Below are positions 18,315-53,348 of a DNA stretch of 64,000 bases, piece after piece. The translations under genes were made by a program, and so were the position numbers. The stretch's first letter is position 1; each line of letters opens with the position of its first letter. The DNA is taken from positions 2,681,001-2,745,000 of the forward strand of contig NZ_CP042910.1 of the NCBI RefSeq assembly GCF_008298035.1. The letters are read 5' to 3'. Below the pieces are notes generated by a model that saw nothing but the letters and a program-made list of their open reading frames with translations, did no database searches and was not told the DNA's origin. Source of the DNA: Gimesia maris. GTDB lineage: Bacteria; Planctomycetota; Planctomycetia; Planctomycetales; Planctomycetaceae.

Positions 18315-19025
18315 TCATTCATCAAAGCCGGGTGGGATCTGGTCCGGGTCTTCGAAACGTTCACCGTCTGGGTTGTTTTTATCGACCACCCAGGGATCGC
18401 CATGGTGATGGTATCCGCAACGTTCCCAGTAGCCTGGCGCATCTTTGGCAAGGAAATCGATCCGTTTGAGCCACTTGGCACTTTTCCAGGCATAGAGCAG
18501 AGGGACGATCAGGCGTACCGGACCCCCATGATCCGGAATCAACGGCTGGCCATCATGCAGATCGCAGAGCAGAACATCTTCGGACTGAAAATCTTTCAGA
18601 GGAAGGTTGGTCGTCCAGTCGCCATCATAGCCGGTCGCCACCACGTAGCGGGCATCGGGATGAACGCCGGCACGTTGCATGATCTCCTGGGCGGAGACTC
18701 CTTCCCACAGATTTCCCAGCCGGGACCAGCGCGTCACGCAATGGAAATCGGCGAAGACCCGGGTCCGCGGGAGCTGCTGGAATTCCTCCCAGGTGAATGA
18801 GAGCGGGGTATTTACCAGTCCGCCGATTTCAAGTTTCCAGGTGTCGAGATTAACCGCCGGGACCGTGGTGGCATGCAGTACAGGCCATTTTCGCGTTCTT
18901 GACTGTCCGGCGGGAATCCGCTCCTGCCGACGGGTGTCTGCACTGATGATGATTTCCGCATCTGCGTCCGGGGGGAGCGGGGGCGCACCGGTCTGATATT
19001 TCTCGGAATCAGGATTATTATACAT
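18315..19025 (-). CDS. Sulfite-oxidase-like molybdopterin oxidoreductase
   Basis: A 236-residue protein of the oxidoreductase molybdopterin-binding (sulfite oxidase/YedY) family. The molybdenum ligand cysteine is Cys96 in FADFHCVTRWSRLGN. Flanking support is WKLEIGGLVNTPLSFTWEEFQQLP before it, and ATGYDGDWTTNLPL, LIPDHGGPVRLIVP and WKSAKWLKRIDFL after it. There is no twin-arginine signal or transmembrane segment, so unlike MsrP/YedY it is probably cytoplasmic, as in the group annotated sulfite-oxidase-like. No haem subunit lies nearby and the electron partner and substrate are unknown. It is convergent with the toroid pair. Length is normal for the single-domain form. Confidence 0.85.
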   Translation of the reverse strand: MYNNPDSEKYQTGAPPLPPDADAEIIISADTRRQERIPAGQSRTRKWPVLHATTVPAVNLDTWKLEIGGLVNTPLSFTWEEFQQLPRTRVFADFHCVTRWSRLGNLWEGVSAQEIMQRAGVHPDARYVVATGYDGDWTTNLPLKDFQSEDVLLCDLHDGQPLIPDHGGPVRLIVPLLYAWKSAKWLKRIDFLAKDAPGYWERCGYHHHGDPWVVDKNNPDGERFEDPDQIPPGFDE

Positions 19026-19422
19026 CTGTAGGCTCCACAGTCATTTAGGAAGAGGCATCCCGAACGGGTTTCCCTCAGAAATATAGGAATTTCGGCTAAA
19101 TTATCCAGAGGAAGATATTACAAATGCCCCAGACTTGGCACATTGGTTGCATTTCTGTATGAGTGAGCCTTCCAATCTCTGAAGTTGCGGTCGCAAGCCG
19201 GCGGAATAACGCCATTGACCATATTTTTCAAAATAAATAAACTTCGGAAAGAGAAGAACTTACAGAAATTAAATGTATTCTGGATAAGGATGGTCTGCTG
19301 CTGGCGAATAATTCAGTCATCAGGGAACGGTTTCTTGTTCCTGCCAGTATGACAGTCGCACCGTGATCAACCAGAAGAAATATTGAAGACTATTTTTCGA
19401 GAATTCGAGTTCGGGTTAAAAA
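19026..19422. other. Divergent intergenic region upstream of secA
   Basis: About 400 bases between the minus-strand oxidoreductase and secA. It holds the sigma-54-like site at 19135-19151, a short palindrome TTGCGGTCGCAA near 19184, and a GGAAC/GTTCC hairpin near 19324-19340. No convincing small ORF is seen between the sigma-54 site and the secA ATG, which would leave a leader of about 260 bases. Confidence 0.5.
19135..19151 (+). promoter_or_regulatory. Sigma-54 (RpoN) type -24/-12 promoter upstream of secA
   Basis: TTGGCACATTGGTTGCA fits the classical YTGGCAC-N5-TTGCW pattern at every fixed position, with the required ten bases between the GG and GC dinucleotides. It points toward secA, 272 bases downstream. 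Under a uniform-base estimate a full match is expected about 0.03 times in both strands of 64 kb, yet two occur here, both intergenic. Enhancer sites for an activator were not identified. Confidence 0.6.
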
Positions 19423-22400
19423 ATGGAATTCCTAGACAAGCTGGGTGAATGGCTAACAACAGTAACGGCATGGTTGGAACGATTTCTGACCGGGTTGTTC
19501 GGTTCATCGAATGAACGACAGATACGGAAACTGGGTTTCGTCCGGGATAAAGAGGGGCATGATCAAATCGTGCCCGGATCCATGCTGGCAGAAATCGACA
19601 GTTTTGAACCGGAGTTGATGAAACTGTCCGAAGAAGAATTGAAACAGACCGCGGAGAAACTCCGCGCCCGCCTCGCTGCGGGGGAAACCCTGGATGATAT
19701 TCTGACTTATGCATTCGCAGCCGTTCGTGAGTCGGCTCGTCGCAATTTGAGTATGCGACATTACCCGGTGCAGATGATCGGGGGCTACTTTCTGCATAAA
19801 GGCATGATTGCAGAAATGGTCACCGGGGAAGGAAAAACGCTGGTATCGTCTCTGCCGGCCTTCCTGAATGCGCTTTCCGGCAAAGTCCATATTGTGACCG
19901 TCAATGATTATCTGGCTTTACGCGACATGGAATGGATGGGCCCCATTCATATTGCGCTGGGACTGACTGTCGGGGCGATCCAGTCCAAAATGGGTCCCGA
20001 AGAACGCCAGAAGCATTACGGCTGCGATATTACCTATGGTACGAATAATGAGTTCGGATTCGACTATCTGCGGGATAACATGAAACCGGTCAAAGAACTG
20101 CAGGTGCAGGGACCCTTAAATTATGCCGTCGTTGACGAAATCGATAATATTCTGATCGACGAAGCACGTACGCCGCTGATTATTTCCGGCCCCGCACAGG
20201 ATGATCTGACCAAATACTCCAAAGCCAATTCCGTAGCCCTGAAGCTGATTCCAGGCACCGATTTTGAAGTCAAAGAAAAAGAGCATACCTGTCACTTAAC
20301 GGACGCGGGGGTCAAACACGCGGAAGAGCTGGCTGGTGTGGAAAGCTTTTATACCGCCGGGAACATGGAATGGCCGCACCTGATCGATAACTCCCTGAAG
20401 GCACATCACCTCTATAAACGGGATGTGAATTATGTCGTTCAGCAGGGCGAAGTGATTATCGTGGACGATCATACCGGGCGACTGATGCCGGGCCGTCAAT
20501 GGGGCGATGGTCTGCATCAGGCGGTGGAAGCCAAAGAAGGTGTGAAAATCAAAGAAGAGTCGCAGACTCTGGCGACGATTACCCTGCAGAACTTTTTCAA
20601 ATTATACGATAAGCTCTCCGGCATGACCGGTACGGCGATGACGGAAGCGGAAGAGTTCTGGAAGATTTATCAGCTGGATGTAGTCAGTATTCCAACCAAC
20701 CGTCCCATGCAGCGTATCAATCATCCCGATGTGATCTATCAGACGGAAAAAGAAAAATGGACTGCGATTGCCGACGAAGTCCGCGAAGTTCATAAACAGG
20801 GACGCCCGATTCTCGTCGGTACCGTTTCGATCGAACAGTCGGAAATTGTCAGTCACAAACTGAGTAAATATGGCATTCCTCACAATGTGCTGAACGCAAA
20901 GCATCACGAACGTGAAGCGGAGATCATTGCGCAGGCAGGTCGTAAAGGCGCTGTCACCATTGCTACGAATATGGCCGGGCGTGGTACTGACATTATTCTG
21001 GGGGGAAGTGCGGAGCATATCGCCTGGGATGAATTGAGCCAGAAATACGCGTCCCGAATTGAAGTCCCCAAAGCGGAGTGGGACAAACTGGTGAAAGAGA
21101 TTGAAAAACGGGAGGGCATGGATGTCGAAGCCGAAGAAGTCATGCAGCTGGGGGGGTTGCATGTGATCGGTTCCGAGCGTCACGATTCCCGTCGTATCGA
21201 CCTGCAGCTGCGTGGTCGTTCGGGACGTCAGGGAGACCCCGGTTCCAGCCGCTTCTTCCTTTCACTCGAAGACAAACTGATGCGGGTGTTTGCCGGCGAA
21301 TGGGTAAAAAATATTCTGTCTCGTCTGGGCATGGAAGAAGGAGAGGCCATCGAGAGTCGGATGGTTTCCAAACGTGTCGAAGGGGCACAGAAGAAACGGG
21401 AAGAAACCCATTTCGAGCAGCGTAAGCATCTGCTGGAATATGATGAAGTCATGGACGAACAGCGAAAAACCGTCTATGGCTACCGTCAGCGGATTCTGGA
21501 TGGCTGCAACTGCCGCGATCTGATCCTGGAAATGATTGAACGCCAGGTCGATGAAGAAACAGAGCGTCTGCTCGATAAAAATTACAGCTGGGATACAATT
21601 GCCGCCTGGTGTGGTCAGGAAGCTCATATCGAAGTGGATGCCGCGAATATTCGTGATATGGATTACGAGCAACTGGTCAGCTATCTGAAAGATGAAGCCA
21701 GCCTGCAGGCGGATGATATCATTGCTGAACAGATCAATGAGAATCTGCCGGAAGAATATGAAGATGACTGGAACTGGCAGGCGTTGACCAAATGGGCGAA
21801 TGCTTATTTCAATTTGAATCTGAATGAACGCGAACTCAAAAAAATCGGCCGGGATGGTCTGCATGAAACGCTCTTCGATCATGCTCAAAAAGCCATCGAG
21901 CGCATCGATTTCACCCCCTTGCAGGCATTTCTGGATGGAGAATGGGGTTCCCGTTCCCTGGCAGGCTATCTGAACTATCAGTTCGGCATCGAAGCCGACC
22001 CGGAAGAATTCAAATCGCTGAGTATTCCCGAAGCGAAAGCCAAAGTACTGGAAAAAGTAAAAGAGCTGTATCGGGAAAAAGAAGTCACCTTCCCGGTAAC
22101 CGTCGGGATGTACAATTTTCTGGGCAATCAACAGCCCGGGAATGAATCAAACAGCCGCGTTGGCCTGGTGAAGTGGGCCAACTCCAGATTTCATTCCAAC
22201 CTGGATCTGGAAGCCCTGAAAGGGAAACAGGTTAATGAGATTCAGAATATCCTGTCCGCAGAAAGTGAAAAGGTTTTTGTTAACGGAGAAGCTTCAAAGC
22301 AGATCGAACAGTATCTGACCAAAGCCTATGCTCCTGAATCGGAAGTCTCTGCCGGAAAGAATCTTCAGCCCGTGCAGAACAAAGCCGCTCTGGGAGAGCT

Positions 22401-22971
22401 GGCTCAGTGGGCAAACGAGGAACTCGAACTGAATCTGACGACGGAAGAGCTGGAACCCCTGACCGACGATGAAGTGAGAATTCGCCTGTATCAGGCTTAC
22501 AACAAACGTTATCGCCCGGAACTCAGTCAGGCAGAACGCTCGCTGATTCTGGAAGTTCTTGATACATCGTGGAAAGACCACTTGTACTATATGGATCATT
22601 TGCGGTCCGGCATTGGTCTGGTTGGCTATGCCCAGAAAGATCCCAAAGTTGAATACCGCCGCGAAGGGATGAAGGCCTTTGATGCCATGTGGGGCCGCAT
22701 TGGTCAGCAGGTCACTTCAGCGATTTTCCGACTGGAAAAACAGAGTCCTGATTTTGTCGGTTCTTTATGGCGGGTTACTGATACGGTCCACGAAGAAGTG
22801 ACGGATGATTACGATTACGATGAGGAGAGTGAAGGGGATACCAATTCTTCCGAGCCTGCTCAGCAGCCAATCGATCCGATTGTCAATCAGCAACCCAAGG
22901 TCGGTCGAAATGATCCCTGTCCGTGTGGCAGCGGGAAGAAATTTAAAAAGTGCTGCGGAAAGAATCTGTAG
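19423..22971 (+). CDS. secA: Preprotein translocase ATPase SecA, enlarged form
   Basis: ATP-driven motor that pushes unfolded preproteins through SecYEG. The first helicase domain has [10 protein letters not shown] near residue 132 and the DEAD-type [17 protein letters not shown] near 237. The second has GTDIILGG near 525 and the arginine-rich [18 protein letters not shown] near 600. The C-terminal tail ends in the zinc-binding [13 protein letters not shown] used for SecB or lipid contact. At 1182 residues it is far longer than E. coli SecA (901). The surplus lies mainly at residues about 725-1040, where a module starting IAAW, LTKWAN, LAGYLN, LVKWAN and LAQWAN recurs at 726, 788, 846, 915 and 993, before the conserved [15 protein letters not shown]. 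The start ATG has only a weak ribosome site (GGGTTAAAAA). Confidence 0.97.
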
Positions 22972-25848: not shown

Positions 25849-26796
25849 ATGCTCGATATGAAACAATCCAAGCAGAATCTTCATTGCCTGGAAAATGAAA
25901 TGACACGGGGAAAGCTGTCTCTTTTGAGAGGGCTTTCCCCTCTGTTTTTCGCCGTCGTCATTATTGCCGGCGGAGGAGGGCTGCTGCTGTTACGTGCCGT
26001 TGGCTCGATTCAGGTTCCAAACAGCTATCTCCCCGTGCTGACCGTAGGCAGCCTGATGTCGTGTCTTGTCGCCGGAACCCTGCTGTTACTGCGCCAGTTC
26101 AGGATGCTCAGGCTTTCAGGCAGCCAAAAGAGTGGCCTCACGCTGGCACTCATATTGCCTGTACTGGCCGGCATGCTGGCGGTCTTGCCTGAAAAGGGAC
26201 TCAATCTGATGGGCATCCTGTTTTTCTGCCTGACCTATTTCATGGCGTTTGCCGGGGTGCTGGAGTGGCTGGACCGGGAGGCAGTACGGTTCGCGGAGAG
26301 TGATCACGTCGATGTGACCGAACAGACGTTTTCTAAAACAGTCCCTGTGGAGTCCCTGGCTGAAGCTGATCCAGAGACCTCAGATCACGCCGAGATCGAT
26401 GCAGGACGTGAAAAGCGTTTTGAAGCGTTACTGGCACAAAGCCAGTCTGATGTTGAATCACTTTCAGACGATCAGGAGCACGCCAATTGCTCACAGTGGA
26501 TGAATCGCAACTCAGATGAGGCAGGTTTTGAATTCATTGAGGGCGGGGTCCTGGTGCAATTTGAACCCCAGCAGAAAACCCGGGTGGTGCATCTCGGACT
26601 GTATCCTCCCCTGAAGGGAAAACTCTCCGTGAACTGCGAATTTGATCCCGGTTTATCGGTCCGGACACGGGTTCTGGAAACCCGGGGCTATGGGATCAGC
26701 GTGGAGGTCAAACGATCTATCGATCTGGAATCAGAATTTGAGGCTGTCATGCAATACTGGGTGACCAATCAGACGTGCAATGAAGATGTTGCCTGA
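25849..26796 (+). CDS. Membrane protein of unknown function
   Basis: A 315-residue protein with about four hydrophobic segments in its first 140 residues (LSPLFFAVVIIAGGGGLLL, YLPVLTVGSLMSCLVAG, LTLALILPVLAGMLAVLP and LMGILFFCLTYFMAFAG), then an acidic linker and a soluble tail of about 170 residues with FIEGGVLVQFEPQQKTRVVHLG and SIDLESEFEAVMQYWV. The tail should face the cytoplasm if the topology has four passes. No family is recognised. An alternative ATG nine bases in (25858) has a better-placed GGGAAG; both give essentially the same protein. It is on the same strand as metK, 41 bases after it. Confidence 0.7.
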   Translation: MLDMKQSKQNLHCLENEMTRGKLSLLRGLSPLFFAVVIIAGGGGLLLLRAVGSIQVPNSYLPVLTVGSLMSCLVAGTLLLLRQFRMLRLSGSQKSGLTLALILPVLAGMLAVLPEKGLNLMGILFFCLTYFMAFAGVLEWLDREAVRFAESDHVDVTEQTFSKTVPVESLAEADPETSDHAEIDAGREKRFEALLAQSQSDVESLSDDQEHANCSQWMNRNSDEAGFEFIEGGVLVQFEPQQKTRVVHLGLYPPLKGKLSVNCEFDPGLSVRTRVLETRGYGISVEVKRSIDLESEFEAVMQYWVTNQTCNEDVA

Positions 26797-50753: not shown

Positions 50754-51443
50754 CGGAATCTTTCAGGATGTGAGTCTCGTTTCTGTCTCTCAGAAAATTA
50801 ACCGCAGCCAGATCACACGCCTTCCCTGGTTGTGTTTAGTCGCTTACTGCCAGTTTCACAATTGGATTACAATCCCTTAAGAATTGATTAACTTCGGATT
50901 TCTCCCGAATCTCATTCTTGAATTTTTTGCTTAAAATATTATAAGATAATCATTTAGAGGCATTGAAAAAACAGAAGCAGAGGGTACACAAACAAAAGGG
51001 AATGCCTGTTTCCGGCCTGTTTATCAATTGTTTTAGTTTGTACCGCCGCCTTCAGGGACTGTCAAGCGGTTAGGCCTGACCTGTGAACTGTTTAGCCTTT
51101 ATTCCAGCGGGCAGGGTGAATTGACTGCCATTATGTCATTTTGCCTCAGAGGCAGAATGGGATTGCGGCGGTGTCAATTTGGCAGTGTCTGTCTGGTTGG
51201 AATTGGTAAGAAAAAACAGTCGTGGTTAGTAAGTGCTTATTTATAAATGACATAGGTCTAATTTTTTGGTTGGTGTTCTGCTTGGCACACTCATTGCTGT
51301 CTAACAACACAGCCTGTAATTTCAGGCAGAATCGAATTAAGTATTGAATCACAAGCGGGAGATGTATGAGGCTGGGAGAGTTTTCTCGTAGTCTGAGCTT
51401 TGTACAGATCTGAAATACGAATAAGGAAAGAGGGGAAACTCAC
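50754..51443. other. Divergent intergenic region between pheA and dnaK
   Basis: About 690 bases. It holds the sigma-54-like site at 51282-51298 and a possible housekeeping promoter at 50918-50945 (TTGAAT, 16 bases, TATAAG) about 500 bases from dnaK. A CIRCE operator was looked for and not found. Between these two sites I see no supported gene; a small inverted repeat flanks 51310-51330 (CAGCCTG and CAGGC). Confidence 0.5.
51282..51298 (+). promoter_or_regulatory. Sigma-54 (RpoN) type -24/-12 promoter upstream of dnaK
   Basis: TTGGCACACTCATTGCT matches YTGGCAC-N5-TTGCW at every fixed position with correct GG-to-GC spacing. Transcription would start near 51310, leaving a leader of about 135 bases before the dnaK ATG. 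Together with the site before secA this is the second exact match in the window; both point to the nearest downstream gene. Confidence 0.65.
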
Positions 51444-53348
51444 ATGTCGTCAGGCGAAAAAATCATCGGTATTGATTTGGGGACAACCAACTCAGTAGTC
51501 TCAATCATGGAAGGCGGGGAAGCGAAAGTGATCCCCAACCTGGAAGGGAATCGAATCACTCCCAGTGTCGTGGCTTTCACTGATAAGGGAGAAACTCTGG
51601 TCGGTGAGCCTGCCAAACGTCAAGCGGTCACCAATCCTAAAAATACGGTCTACTCGGTAAAACGCTTTATGGGACGTCGTCATAACGAGGTTCAGAGCGA
51701 AGAGAAGATAGTTCCTTACGGGATTATTGGTGGGCCGGAAGACTATGTCAAAATTGAAGCGGGTGGCAAAACTTATACGCCGCCCGAAATCTCCGCTTCC
51801 ATTTTGCGGAAACTGAAAGAAGCTGCCGAAAGCTATCTGGGACATAAAGTCAACAAAGCAGTGGTTACCGTGCCGGCTTATTTCAATGATGCTCAGCGAC
51901 AGGCGACCAAGGATGCCGGTCAGATTTCCGGTCTGGAAGTCTCTCGCATCATCAACGAGCCTACCGCGGCTGCCCTGGCTTACGGCCTGGAGAAAAAGAG
52001 CGACGAAAAAATCGTGGTGTTCGACTTCGGTGGCGGTACGTTTGACGTTTCTGTTCTCGAAGTAGGCGATGAAGTCATCGAAACTTTGAGCACCAACGGC
52101 GATGGTCACCTCGGGGGTGACGATTTCGATGAAGAACTGATCAATCATATTGCTGATTCCTTCAAGAAAGAGCAGGGGATCGATCTGCGAAGCGACGCCA
52201 TGGCGTTGCAGCGTCTGAGAGAGGCCGCTGAAAAGGCCAAGAAAGAACTGTCCTCTTCCCAGACGACAGATATCAATCTGCCCTTCATCACCGCAGACAG
52301 CAGTGGTGCAAAGCACTTGCAGATGGCAATTACCCGGTCTGAATTTGAGAAGCTGATCGATCCTCTGGTGGAACGCTGCCGGAAACCGGTTGAGCAGGCC
52401 ATGAAAGATGCCGGTCTCAGTGCCAGTGAAATTGACGAAGTTGTGCTGGTGGGTGGTTCCACCCGTGTTCCCAAGGTTCAGGAATTTGTTAAGAAGATCT
52501 TTGGTAAAGAACCTCATAAAGGGGTTAACCCGGACGAAGTGGTTTCAATCGGAGCCGCGATTCAGGGGGGAATTATCTCTGGTGATGTTCAGGATGTAGT
52601 GCTGCTCGACGTAACACCACTCTCTCTCGGGATTGAAACCGAGGGTGGCGTGATGACCAAACTGGTTGAGCGTAACACCACGATTCCTGTGACGAAAGAT
52701 CAGGTGTTCTCGACTGCTGCCGACAATCAGACTGCTGTCACTGTCCGTGTGTTTCAGGGAGAACGACAGATGGCCAGCGACAACCGGTTGCTGGGTCAGT
52801 TTAACCTGGAAGAAATTCCGCCGGCACCGCGTGGGGTTCCTCAGATTAAGGTGGTATTCGATATCGACGTGAACGGCATTCTGAACGTGTCAGCCAAGGA
52901 TGTTGCCACTGGTAAAGAGACATCAGTTAAAATCGAACAGTCGAGCGGACTGTCTGAATCTGAAATCGAAGATATGAAGAAACAGGCAGAAGCACACGCT
53001 GATGAAGACAAGAAGAAGAAAGAGCTGGCAGAGGCGAAGAACAACGGTTCCCGCATCGTTTATGATGTGGAAAAACTGTTGAAAGAACATGCTGATAAAA
53101 TTGATGAATCCTCAAAAACTGCGATCGAAGCATCCGTTAAGAAAGTCAACGATGCTCTCGAAACAGAAGACGTTGCAGCCATCAATTCAGCTTGTGAAGA
53201 GTTGCAGCAGGCCACGCATGCCTTCACCGAGCAGATGTATAAAGCGAGCCAGGAAGCCGGAGGAGCCGAAGGTGCTGCTCCGGAAGCGGGTGGTGCAGCA
53301 GCCGATGAAGAGGATGTGATTGATGCCGAGTTTGAGAAAAAGGACTGA
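51444..53348 (+). CDS. dnaK: Chaperone DnaK (Hsp70)
   Basis: ATP-dependent Hsp70 that binds exposed hydrophobic peptide segments. The actin-like ATPase begins [10 protein letters not shown] (8-17), with [20 protein letters not shown] near 140, [12 protein letters not shown] near 195 and [13 protein letters not shown] near 334. The linker is [19 protein letters not shown]. The substrate domain and acidic tail end [13 protein letters not shown]. Length (634) is normal. The ATG is preceded by AAGAGGGGAAA. dnaJ and grpE are not adjacent. A sigma-54-like site lies upstream and a strong hairpin downstream; clpB follows on the same strand, so this is a protein-quality-control locus. Confidence 0.98.

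What the first reader, a model, noticed from the sequence alone, without database searches (positions are those of the whole stretch)
19135..19151. Exact sigma-54 promoter pattern before secA
TTGGCACATTGGTTGCA has the complete -24/-12 consensus with correct spacing and points to secA. Control of the main secretion motor by sigma-54 and an activator would be unusual; RpoN normally serves nitrogen, motility or envelope-stress genes. The leader would be about 260 bases.
Basis: partly seen in the sequence, partly recalled or inferred. Interest (0 to 1): 0.62.

Follow-up and report, generated by a model that had tools for sequence, protein, structure and literature searches.

The report
Stress-type sigma-54 promoter before secA
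In a group of planctomycete bacteria the gene for the protein-export motor SecA appears to carry, besides its everyday start signal, a second switch of the kind found before heat-shock chaperone genes, with its control site on the unusual (downstream) side; this is read from conserved sequence and not yet shown by experiment.

Summary
TTGGCACATTGGTTGCA (19135-19151) is a full -24/-12 match pointing at secA, invariant in 15 of 15 aligned genus sequences. It is not isolated. secA has three ordered elements: P1 (the sigma-54 site); P2, a sigma-70-like promoter (TTGACC-N17-TAAACT, 19215-19243); and an inverted repeat, IR (CTGCCAGTATGACAG, 19341-19355). The same IR lies 89-166 bp upstream of sigma-54 sites of dnaK, two groEL loci and an hsp20 gene, where an activator's enhancer is expected. 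At secA it lies downstream. Among 42 related secA loci P1 and IR go together (18 both, 4 P1 only, 0 IR only, 20 neither at the most favourable of four thresholds; 14, 3, 4, 21 at the strictest). P1-P2 spacing moves in helical turns (about 50, 60, 71, 81, 91 bp; 20 of 22 loci; Rayleigh p 2e-6). Best reading: a constitutive P2 plus a stress-inducible sigma-54 P1, controlled with the chaperones through a downstream enhancer. The activator is unidentified and no transcript was measured. The phase-locking of a sigma-54 site to a sigma-70 promoter is unexplained.

The parts
19135..19151 (+). P1: sigma-54-type -24/-12 element TTGGCACATTGGTTGCA; predicted start about 19162
   Evidence: exact; 17 of 17 bases invariant in 15 of 15 genus sequences
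19215..19243 (+). P2: sigma-70-like promoter TTGACC-N17-TAAACT
   Evidence: -35 and -10 invariant in genus; 37 of 39 family loci forward, 0 reverse, 0.8 by mononucleotide shuffle
19257..19265 (+). unknown motif AACTTACAG (family form near [AG][CG]TTA[CG]G), about +8 of P2
   Evidence: seen by eye, not counted or tested; function unknown
19341..19355 (.). IR: inverted repeat CTGCCAGTATGACAG, proposed activator enhancer downstream of P1 and P2
   Evidence: invariant in 15 of 15; only 12/12 match in the window; co-occurs with P1 in the family
19423..22971 (+). secA (1182 aa)
   Evidence: SecA_DEAD, SecA_PP_bind, SecA_SW, SEC-C
51125..51139 (.). IR copy 1 upstream of dnaK, CTGCCATTATGTCAT (10/12)
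   Evidence: a copy here in 16 of 16 genus dnaK loci
51171..51185 (.). IR copy 2 upstream of dnaK, GTGTCAATTTGGCAG (11/12)
   Evidence: a copy here in 16 of 16 genus dnaK loci
51282..51298 (+). sigma-54-type promoter of dnaK, TTGGCACACTCATTGCT
   Evidence: TTGGCAC-N5-TTGC kept in 16 of 16 genus dnaK loci
51444..53198 (+). dnaK, 5' part as searched (Hsp70)

Best explanation
secA has two tandem promoters. P2 (sigma-70 type) gives housekeeping SecA. P1 (19135-19151) is a sigma-54 promoter that joins secA to the cell's sigma-54 chaperone regulon. A bacterial enhancer-binding protein that recognises CTGYCA-N3-TGRCAG binds upstream of the sigma-54 promoters of dnaK, groEL and hsp20, and at secA binds one copy about 206 bp downstream of P1, reaching back over P2 by DNA looping to open the sigma-54 polymerase at P1 when misfolded protein or heat stress calls for it. 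Shown: the elements, their conservation, shared motif, order, spacing and co-occurrence. Inferred: that RpoN binds P1, that the IR binds the activator, that it acts from downstream, and that the signal is protein-folding stress.
For: P1 invariant in 15 of 15 genus sequences. Family enrichment is strand-specific: 19 of 39 forward, 2 reverse, shuffle mean 2.4. One RpoN (E 4.2e-61) whose C-terminal RpoN box looks intact to me by recall, and 19 strong activator ATPase domains. CTGYCAN3TGRCAG has three places in the genome, one before secA and two before groEL genes. CTGCCAN3TGGCAG (a form secA itself does not have) has 36 places in 17 genus genomes against 1 for the reversed control (sums mine). 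dnaK: an IR of at least 10/12 lies 97-158 bp upstream of the best sigma-54 site in 24 of 25 loci; groELa 4 of 4, groELc 4 of 4, hsp5 4 of 4. At secA, 14 of 19 loci with P1 of score 12 or more have an IR of at least 10/12 downstream, against 3.7% of coding control windows. P1 and IR co-occur in 42 loci: 18 both, 4 P1 only, 0 IR only, 20 neither at P1 score 9 (Fisher 2e-8); 16, 4, 2, 20 at 11 (5e-6); 14, 3, 4, 21 at 12 (3e-5), with absences on several branches of the SecA tree. Rhodopirellula heat shock raised SecA, with DnaK and GroEL also raised (PMC2754498, passages read). Sigma-54 promoters are predicted on planctomycete chaperones (PMC12316311, passages).
Against: No transcript data. P1 is phased to P2, which a plain sigma-54 promoter does not need; P1-to-IR phasing is not significant (p 0.07; 0.14). 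Four P1-bearing loci have no IR at 10/12. Of 22 family P1 sites of score 11 or more, 9 have C instead of T before GG and 12 end in C or G, weaker than consensus. CTGYCAN3TGRCAG is not in excess in the own genome (3 places against 5 reversed), nor CTGCCAN3TGGCAG in the 23 genomes outside the genus (14 against 35). The 34 secA loci of the second group, many titled Pirellulales and one Rhodopirellula sp., lack the forward site (1 forward, 6 reverse, shuffle mean 2.0 and maximum 5), so the Rhodopirellula heat induction is only a parallel, and its authors saw no heat regulation of rpoN. The activator is unknown; no activator gene of this genome has the YR form of the IR near it, two have a loose form (L054, L065). 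GroELb, clpB and several hsp20 genes lack the IR. Score weights and IR consensus are mine, and Fisher ignores shared ancestry.
Confidence: 0.72

Rival explanations
1. The -24/-12-like element is not a sigma-54 promoter but the site of an ordinary class-I-type activator of P2, which would explain why its distance to P2 moves in whole helical turns.
For: P1-P2 spacing in 22 loci clusters at 49-51, 59-62, 71-72, 80-82 and 91 (20 of 22; the others 105 and 128); Rayleigh R 0.77, p 2e-6 at 10.5 bp; 29 weak-site controls p 0.85. 19 clade-collapsed values with both outliers: R 0.73, p 4e-5. L017, missed by the first scripts, reads 61.
Against: The site is the sigma-54 consensus, GG-N10-GC, non-palindromic, and of the same type as the sites of dnaK and groEL; its partner IR is found upstream of those sigma-54 sites; IR and P1 go together.
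Confidence: 0.15
2. P1 is a real sigma-54 binding site but the closed sigma-54 polymerase mainly serves P2 (contact, anchoring or insulation), with little transcription from P1.
For: Phase-locking to P2 and a shortest spacing of about 50 bp, which by my estimate just lets two polymerases sit side by side.
Against: Does not need the IR, yet IR and P1 go together.
Confidence: 0.1
3. The conserved blocks are a regulatory RNA leader or arrest-peptide leader of the SecM kind.
For: A leader of 180-260 bases with conserved stretches, including just before the ATG; a TTG-started frame through the P2 block is open in all 15 genus leaders.
Against: That frame starts in the -35 box of P2 and ends differently between species, so no start-to-stop frame is shared; covariation term -0.17 of -10.76 kcal/mol; no Rfam match at E up to 1; P1 itself lies outside the transcript.
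Confidence: 0.02
4. Chance match of no function.
For: With up to one mismatch, 4 such sites in 64 kb against 2.57 expected.
Against: 17 of 17 bases invariant in 15 of 15; family enrichment; co-occurrence with IR.
Confidence: 0.01

Closest known systems
Sigma-54 chaperone promoters predicted in Planctomycetia (PMC12316311; passages read)
   Same: Same sigma factor, same promoter type, same functional theme (GroEL, GroES, DnaK, DnaJ, GrpE, IbpA, ATP-dependent proteases).
   Different: secA has 0 occurrences in the text; no enhancer motif, downstream position or P1-P2 phasing in the passages I read.
Tandem sigma-54 and sigma-66 promoters before hrcA and omcA in Chlamydia trachomatis (PMC7482065; passages read)
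   Same: A sigma-54 and a housekeeping promoter in tandem before a heat-shock gene; chlamydiae belong to the same superphylum (recalled).
   Different: secA, dnaK, groEL and phasing have 0 occurrences in the text.
Flavobacterium psychrophilum sigma-54 promoters on groESL, lon, dnaK, grpE-dnaJ, htpG, clpB, skp (PMC9723704; passages read)
   Same: Starts mapped by 5'-end sequencing, with -24/-12 elements, on chaperone genes in another phylum.
   Different: secA has 0 occurrences; activator and enhancer not identified in the passages.
Rhodopirellula baltica heat-shock response (PMC2754498; passages read)
   Same: SecA induced, with DnaK, GroEL, ClpB, Hsp20 also induced.
   Different: rpoN was not seen to be heat-regulated; the Pirellulales-containing group of secA loci lacks the P1 type (1 of 34).
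Sigma-54 promoters with enhancers placed downstream (recalled: Caulobacter flagellar ftr sites)
   Same: Activator site downstream of the start.
   Different: Here a sigma-70-like promoter lies between, and the same motif is upstream at sister genes. Recalled, not looked up; one search found no paper holding its three terms.
E. coli secM-secA regulation (recalled)
   Same: Adjustable secA supply.
   Different: Translational there; here transcriptional, with no shared leader peptide found.

Membership tests
sigma-54-dependent promoter | GG and GC ten bases apart within YTGGCAC-N5-TTGCW | tested here: met
   for this window; weaker in many family members
sigma-54-dependent promoter | organism has RpoN | tested here: met
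sigma-54-dependent promoter | organism has AAA+ enhancer-binding proteins | tested here: met
   19 strong (E about 4e-27 or better) of 28 PF00158 matches listed
sigma-54-dependent promoter | enhancer within looping distance | tested here: inconclusive
   a candidate, IR, lies about 206 bp downstream; its role as enhancer is inferred from dnaK, groEL, hsp20 and co-occurrence
sigma-54-dependent promoter | RpoN- and activator-dependent transcript | not testable with these tools
   needs RNA data
planctomycete sigma-54 chaperone regulon | same promoter type and same IR as dnaK and groEL | tested here: met
planctomycete sigma-54 chaperone regulon | IR upstream of the promoter (89-166 bp) | tested here: not met
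   in this genome the only repeat within 500 bp of P1 is downstream; two searches looked only downstream of P1 in the family
planctomycete sigma-54 chaperone regulon | induction by folding stress | not testable with these tools
   parallel only in R. baltica
class-I activator site of P2 | helical phasing to the promoter | tested here: met
class-I activator site of P2 | site of a known activator | tested here: inconclusive
   matches the sigma-54 consensus; no other protein was sought
SecM-like or RNA leader | conserved leader ORF or covarying structure | tested here: not met
CIRCE/HrcA chaperone control | CIRCE repeat near chaperone genes | tested here: not met
   0 of 15 loci tested (secA included)

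The most novel reading that the evidence does not exclude
At secA a sigma-54 polymerase and a sigma-70 polymerase sit on the same face of the DNA, at touching distance or one to four turns beyond it, and work as one unit: the sigma-70 polymerase at P2 is the hinge of the loop by which an activator bound downstream opens the sigma-54 polymerase, or the two polymerases contact each other. This would be a tandem-promoter switch in which the housekeeping promoter itself is part of the stress promoter's machinery.
Probability: 0.22. Interest if true: 0.82.

Novelty: new variant of a known kind. Interest (0 to 1): 0.62.

Why it matters
It would place the cell's export motor in the same stress regulon as the folding chaperones, in a phylum for whose sigma-54 chaperone promoters I found no described activator (searches; passages of PMC12316311). 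It names a candidate enhancer word, CTGYCA-N3-TGRCAG, that can be used to find that activator. The P1-P2 phase-locking makes a mechanistic question directly testable by inserting half or whole helical turns.

Tried and rejected
Leader RNA, leader peptide, CIRCE and Rfam readings were tested and dropped. P1-to-IR helical phasing was tested and is not significant (p 0.14 at 10.5 bp, p 0.07). My first sigma-54 regular expression for dnaK had the wrong length and found nothing useful; the score used replaced it. says nothing about the promoters of clpB and clpC, because the fetched flank there lies inside the genes; for clpB I looked in the window itself (no IR of 10/12 or more and no sigma-54 site of 11.5 or more from 700 bp before to 200 bp after the start of the open frame); clpC remains unexamined. 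Activator: three of the 19 have reciprocal-best orthologs in all 6 compared genomes (L049, L053, L060; a first extraction missed 14 of 101 proteins). One ortholog of L049 (L311 in G027) has two IRs just before the start I infer, but the gene in this genome does not, so I name it only as a weak candidate.

L017 does have P2 and L195 one by the script. L218 counts as 'neither' although it has a 12/12 IR and a P1 of score 14.2, because both lie outside that script's distance limits. The 17 clade-collapsed spacings were chosen by me, included one P1 of score 9.2 and left out both outliers (105, 128); one search repeats the test with them (n 19: R 0.73, p 4e-5, 0 of 20000 simulations). P1 thresholds 9, 10, 11 and 12 and eight periods were tried. 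The sigma-54 weights are from recalled consensus and the IR consensus from this genome, so thresholds are not independent of the data.

Full report
What is there. The window lies in a single-contig 7.8-Mb genome (I call it Gimesia-like from recall, the tools name no organism for it; named secA relatives are planctomycetes). TTGGCACATTGGTTGCA stands at 19135-19151 on the strand of secA (19423-22971; SecA domains). Upstream, on the other strand, is a molybdopterin-oxidoreductase-type gene (18315-19025). The match as such is weak evidence: with one mismatch allowed the window holds 4 such sites against 2.57 expected, and the genome 12 exact cores against 5 for the pattern read backwards, some of them inside long reading frames.

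Conservation. A match to the SecA protein, paralogs included, was found in 39 of 40 genomes. I aligned the upstream DNA of the own copy and 14 genus members; the two other genus assemblies (74% and 76% complete) gave no full-length secA. All 17 bases of P1 are invariant in 15 of 15 at nearly constant distance from the ATG, and so are TTGACC and TAAACT of P2 and CTGCCAGTATGACAG (IR). The 20-base bins around and between the blocks are 0-20% invariant, mixed bins aside (in one search one sequence was anchored wrongly and is to be ignored).

The shared repeat. The second exact sigma-54 core of the window, at 51282-51298, stands before dnaK, with two copies of the same repeat 111 and 157 bp upstream. 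In 16 of 16 genus dnaK loci the core and both repeats are kept; of all 25 dnaK loci examined, 24 have a repeat of at least 10/12 upstream of the best sigma-54 site (the exception is L127). GroELa has TTGGCATGNNGATTGCA 89 bp downstream of a perfect repeat in 4 of 4 genomes; another groEL locus (repeat 762 bp before the matched part, probably with groES between, not tested) and one hsp20 gene show the same order in 4 of 4 each. A second hsp20 gene shows a repeat by regular expression in 3 of 4, with two 10/12 copies in the own genome. GroELb and the other hsp20 loci do not, nor does clpB; clpC was not examined. CTGYCAN3TGRCAG has three places in this genome: before two groEL genes and secA; its reversed control has five, so the number is no excess, but all three lie before proteostasis or export genes. 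CTGCCAN3TGGCAG, which secA does not have, gives 36 places in 17 genus genomes against 1 reversed, and 14 against 35 in the 23 other genomes (sums mine), so as a bare word it is informative in this genus only.

Beyond the genus. One scan of named genomes with a SecA alignment gave 80 loci (the tool kept the best 80), 73 with enough upstream DNA. In the first group of 39 (L183-L223 and L252) a sigma-54 site of score 12 or more lies within 450 bp on the secA strand in 19, on the reverse strand in 2, in coding controls 1, in shuffles 2.4 (maximum 6). In the other 34, many titled Pirellulales, it is 1 forward and 6 reverse against 2.0 (maximum 5) in shuffles. So P1 belongs to one family-level group. 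P2 is found forward in 37 of 39 of that group and reverse in 0, with 0.8 expected from mononucleotide shuffles; outside it a P2-like pattern is often missing. Of 19 loci with a strong P1, 14 have an IR of at least 10/12 131-207 bp downstream against 3.7% of coding windows.

Linkage of P1 and IR. In 42 loci with P2, counting IR at 10/12 or more: with P1 at score 9, 18 both, 4 P1 only, 0 IR only, 20 neither (Fisher 2e-8); at 10 and at 11, 16, 4, 2, 20 (5e-6); at 12, 14, 3, 4, 21 (3e-5). The SecA tree of 47 rows shows the absences on several branches, for example L212 beside L206, L202 beside L203, and a clade of eight. Fisher ignores ancestry, and L202 against L203 may be a threshold effect. All 42 were chosen to have P2. 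This is what a sigma-54 promoter and its enhancer should do, and it is the main ground for reading P1 as sigma-54 and the IR as its enhancer although the IR lies downstream.

Phase-locking. The distance from the start of P1 to the start of TTGACC is 49, 50, 50, 50, 50, 51, 59, 60, 60, 60, 62, 71, 71, 72, 80, 82, 82, 82, 91, 91, 105 and 128 in the 22 loci with P1 at 11 or more. At 10.5 bp the Rayleigh p is 2e-6 (of eight periods tried, 11.0 is slightly better); 29 loci whose best site is weak give 0.85. With 17 values collapsed by clade, R is 0.87 and none of 20000 simulations reached it with the period free between 9.5 and 11.5; with both outliers put back, R is 0.73, p 4e-5, again 0 of 20000. 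L017, missed by the first scripts, reads 61. P2 to IR gives p 0.0014, P1 to IR 0.07. I did not expect this; it is the strangest part. It may mean simultaneous occupancy of P1 and P2 on one face, with the P2 polymerase as hinge of the loop, or that P1 is a site acting on P2. The first keeps the sigma-54 reading, the second does not.

Activator. The genome has 28 PF00158 matches, 19 of them strong. Orthologs of three (L049 and L060, which look like response regulators; L053, 352 aa with no long N-terminal domain; by reading, not by domain search, since one search failed) occur in all six other genomes compared. In one, the L049 ortholog carries two repeats 48 bp apart just before its inferred start. 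This is a lead, not an identification.

Literature. Passages read: planctomycete chaperone genes are enriched for predicted sigma-54 promoters, secA unmentioned (PMC12316311); sigma-54-type starts on chaperones in Flavobacterium (PMC9723704); tandem sigma-54 and sigma-66 promoters before hrcA and omcA in Chlamydia (PMC7482065); SecA among heat-induced genes of Rhodopirellula, with rpoN not seen to be heat-regulated (PMC2754498); a Xylella list with a predicted site 43 bases before secE-nusG, score 8.79 (PMC3224663). Searches for sigma-54 control of secA, downstream enhancers and phased tandem promoters gave no paper on the point among those whose listings or passages I saw; this covers only the open library. 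The Studholme and Dixon 2004 study of Pirellula activators was seen only as a reference. The other papers opened (PMC5493296, PMC6426960, PMC6389857, passages) do not bear on it.

Verdict. What is new is the gene, the downstream enhancer and the phasing. All function is inferred from sequence.

Noticed in passing
51125-51298: dnaK has an exact sigma-54 promoter with two inverted repeats 46 bp apart upstream, kept in 16 of 16 genus loci.
   Followed up: yes
19257-19265: Motif near [AG][CG]TTA[CG]G about +8 of P2, seen by eye in many P1-bearing secA loci; function unknown.
   Followed up: partly
19103-19134: Strongly conserved stretch directly upstream of P1 in the genus, not explained; might belong to the divergent gene.
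   Followed up: no
19390-19422: Conserved stretch just before the secA ATG without an obvious Shine-Dalgarno sequence.
   Followed up: no
L311 (G027:C1, near 4312406-4312909): An activator gene of the L049 type with two IR copies 48 bp apart just before its inferred start.
   Followed up: partly
26143-26159 (+) and 5085 (-): Two further high-scoring sigma-54-like sites in the window; the first lies inside the ORF 25849-26796.
   Followed up: no
L040 and L042: Other exact sigma-54 cores of the genome lie near the start of an activator gene and before a prepilin-like protein (the second named from recall).
   Followed up: no
G000, places listed: The word CTGCCAATTTGCCA recurs in seven places of the capped list, perhaps a repeated element.
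   Followed up: no
second secA group, L224-L262: Strong sigma-54-like sites are slightly more frequent on the strand opposite to secA (6 of 34, shuffle mean 2.0, maximum 5); divergent genes not examined.
   Followed up: no
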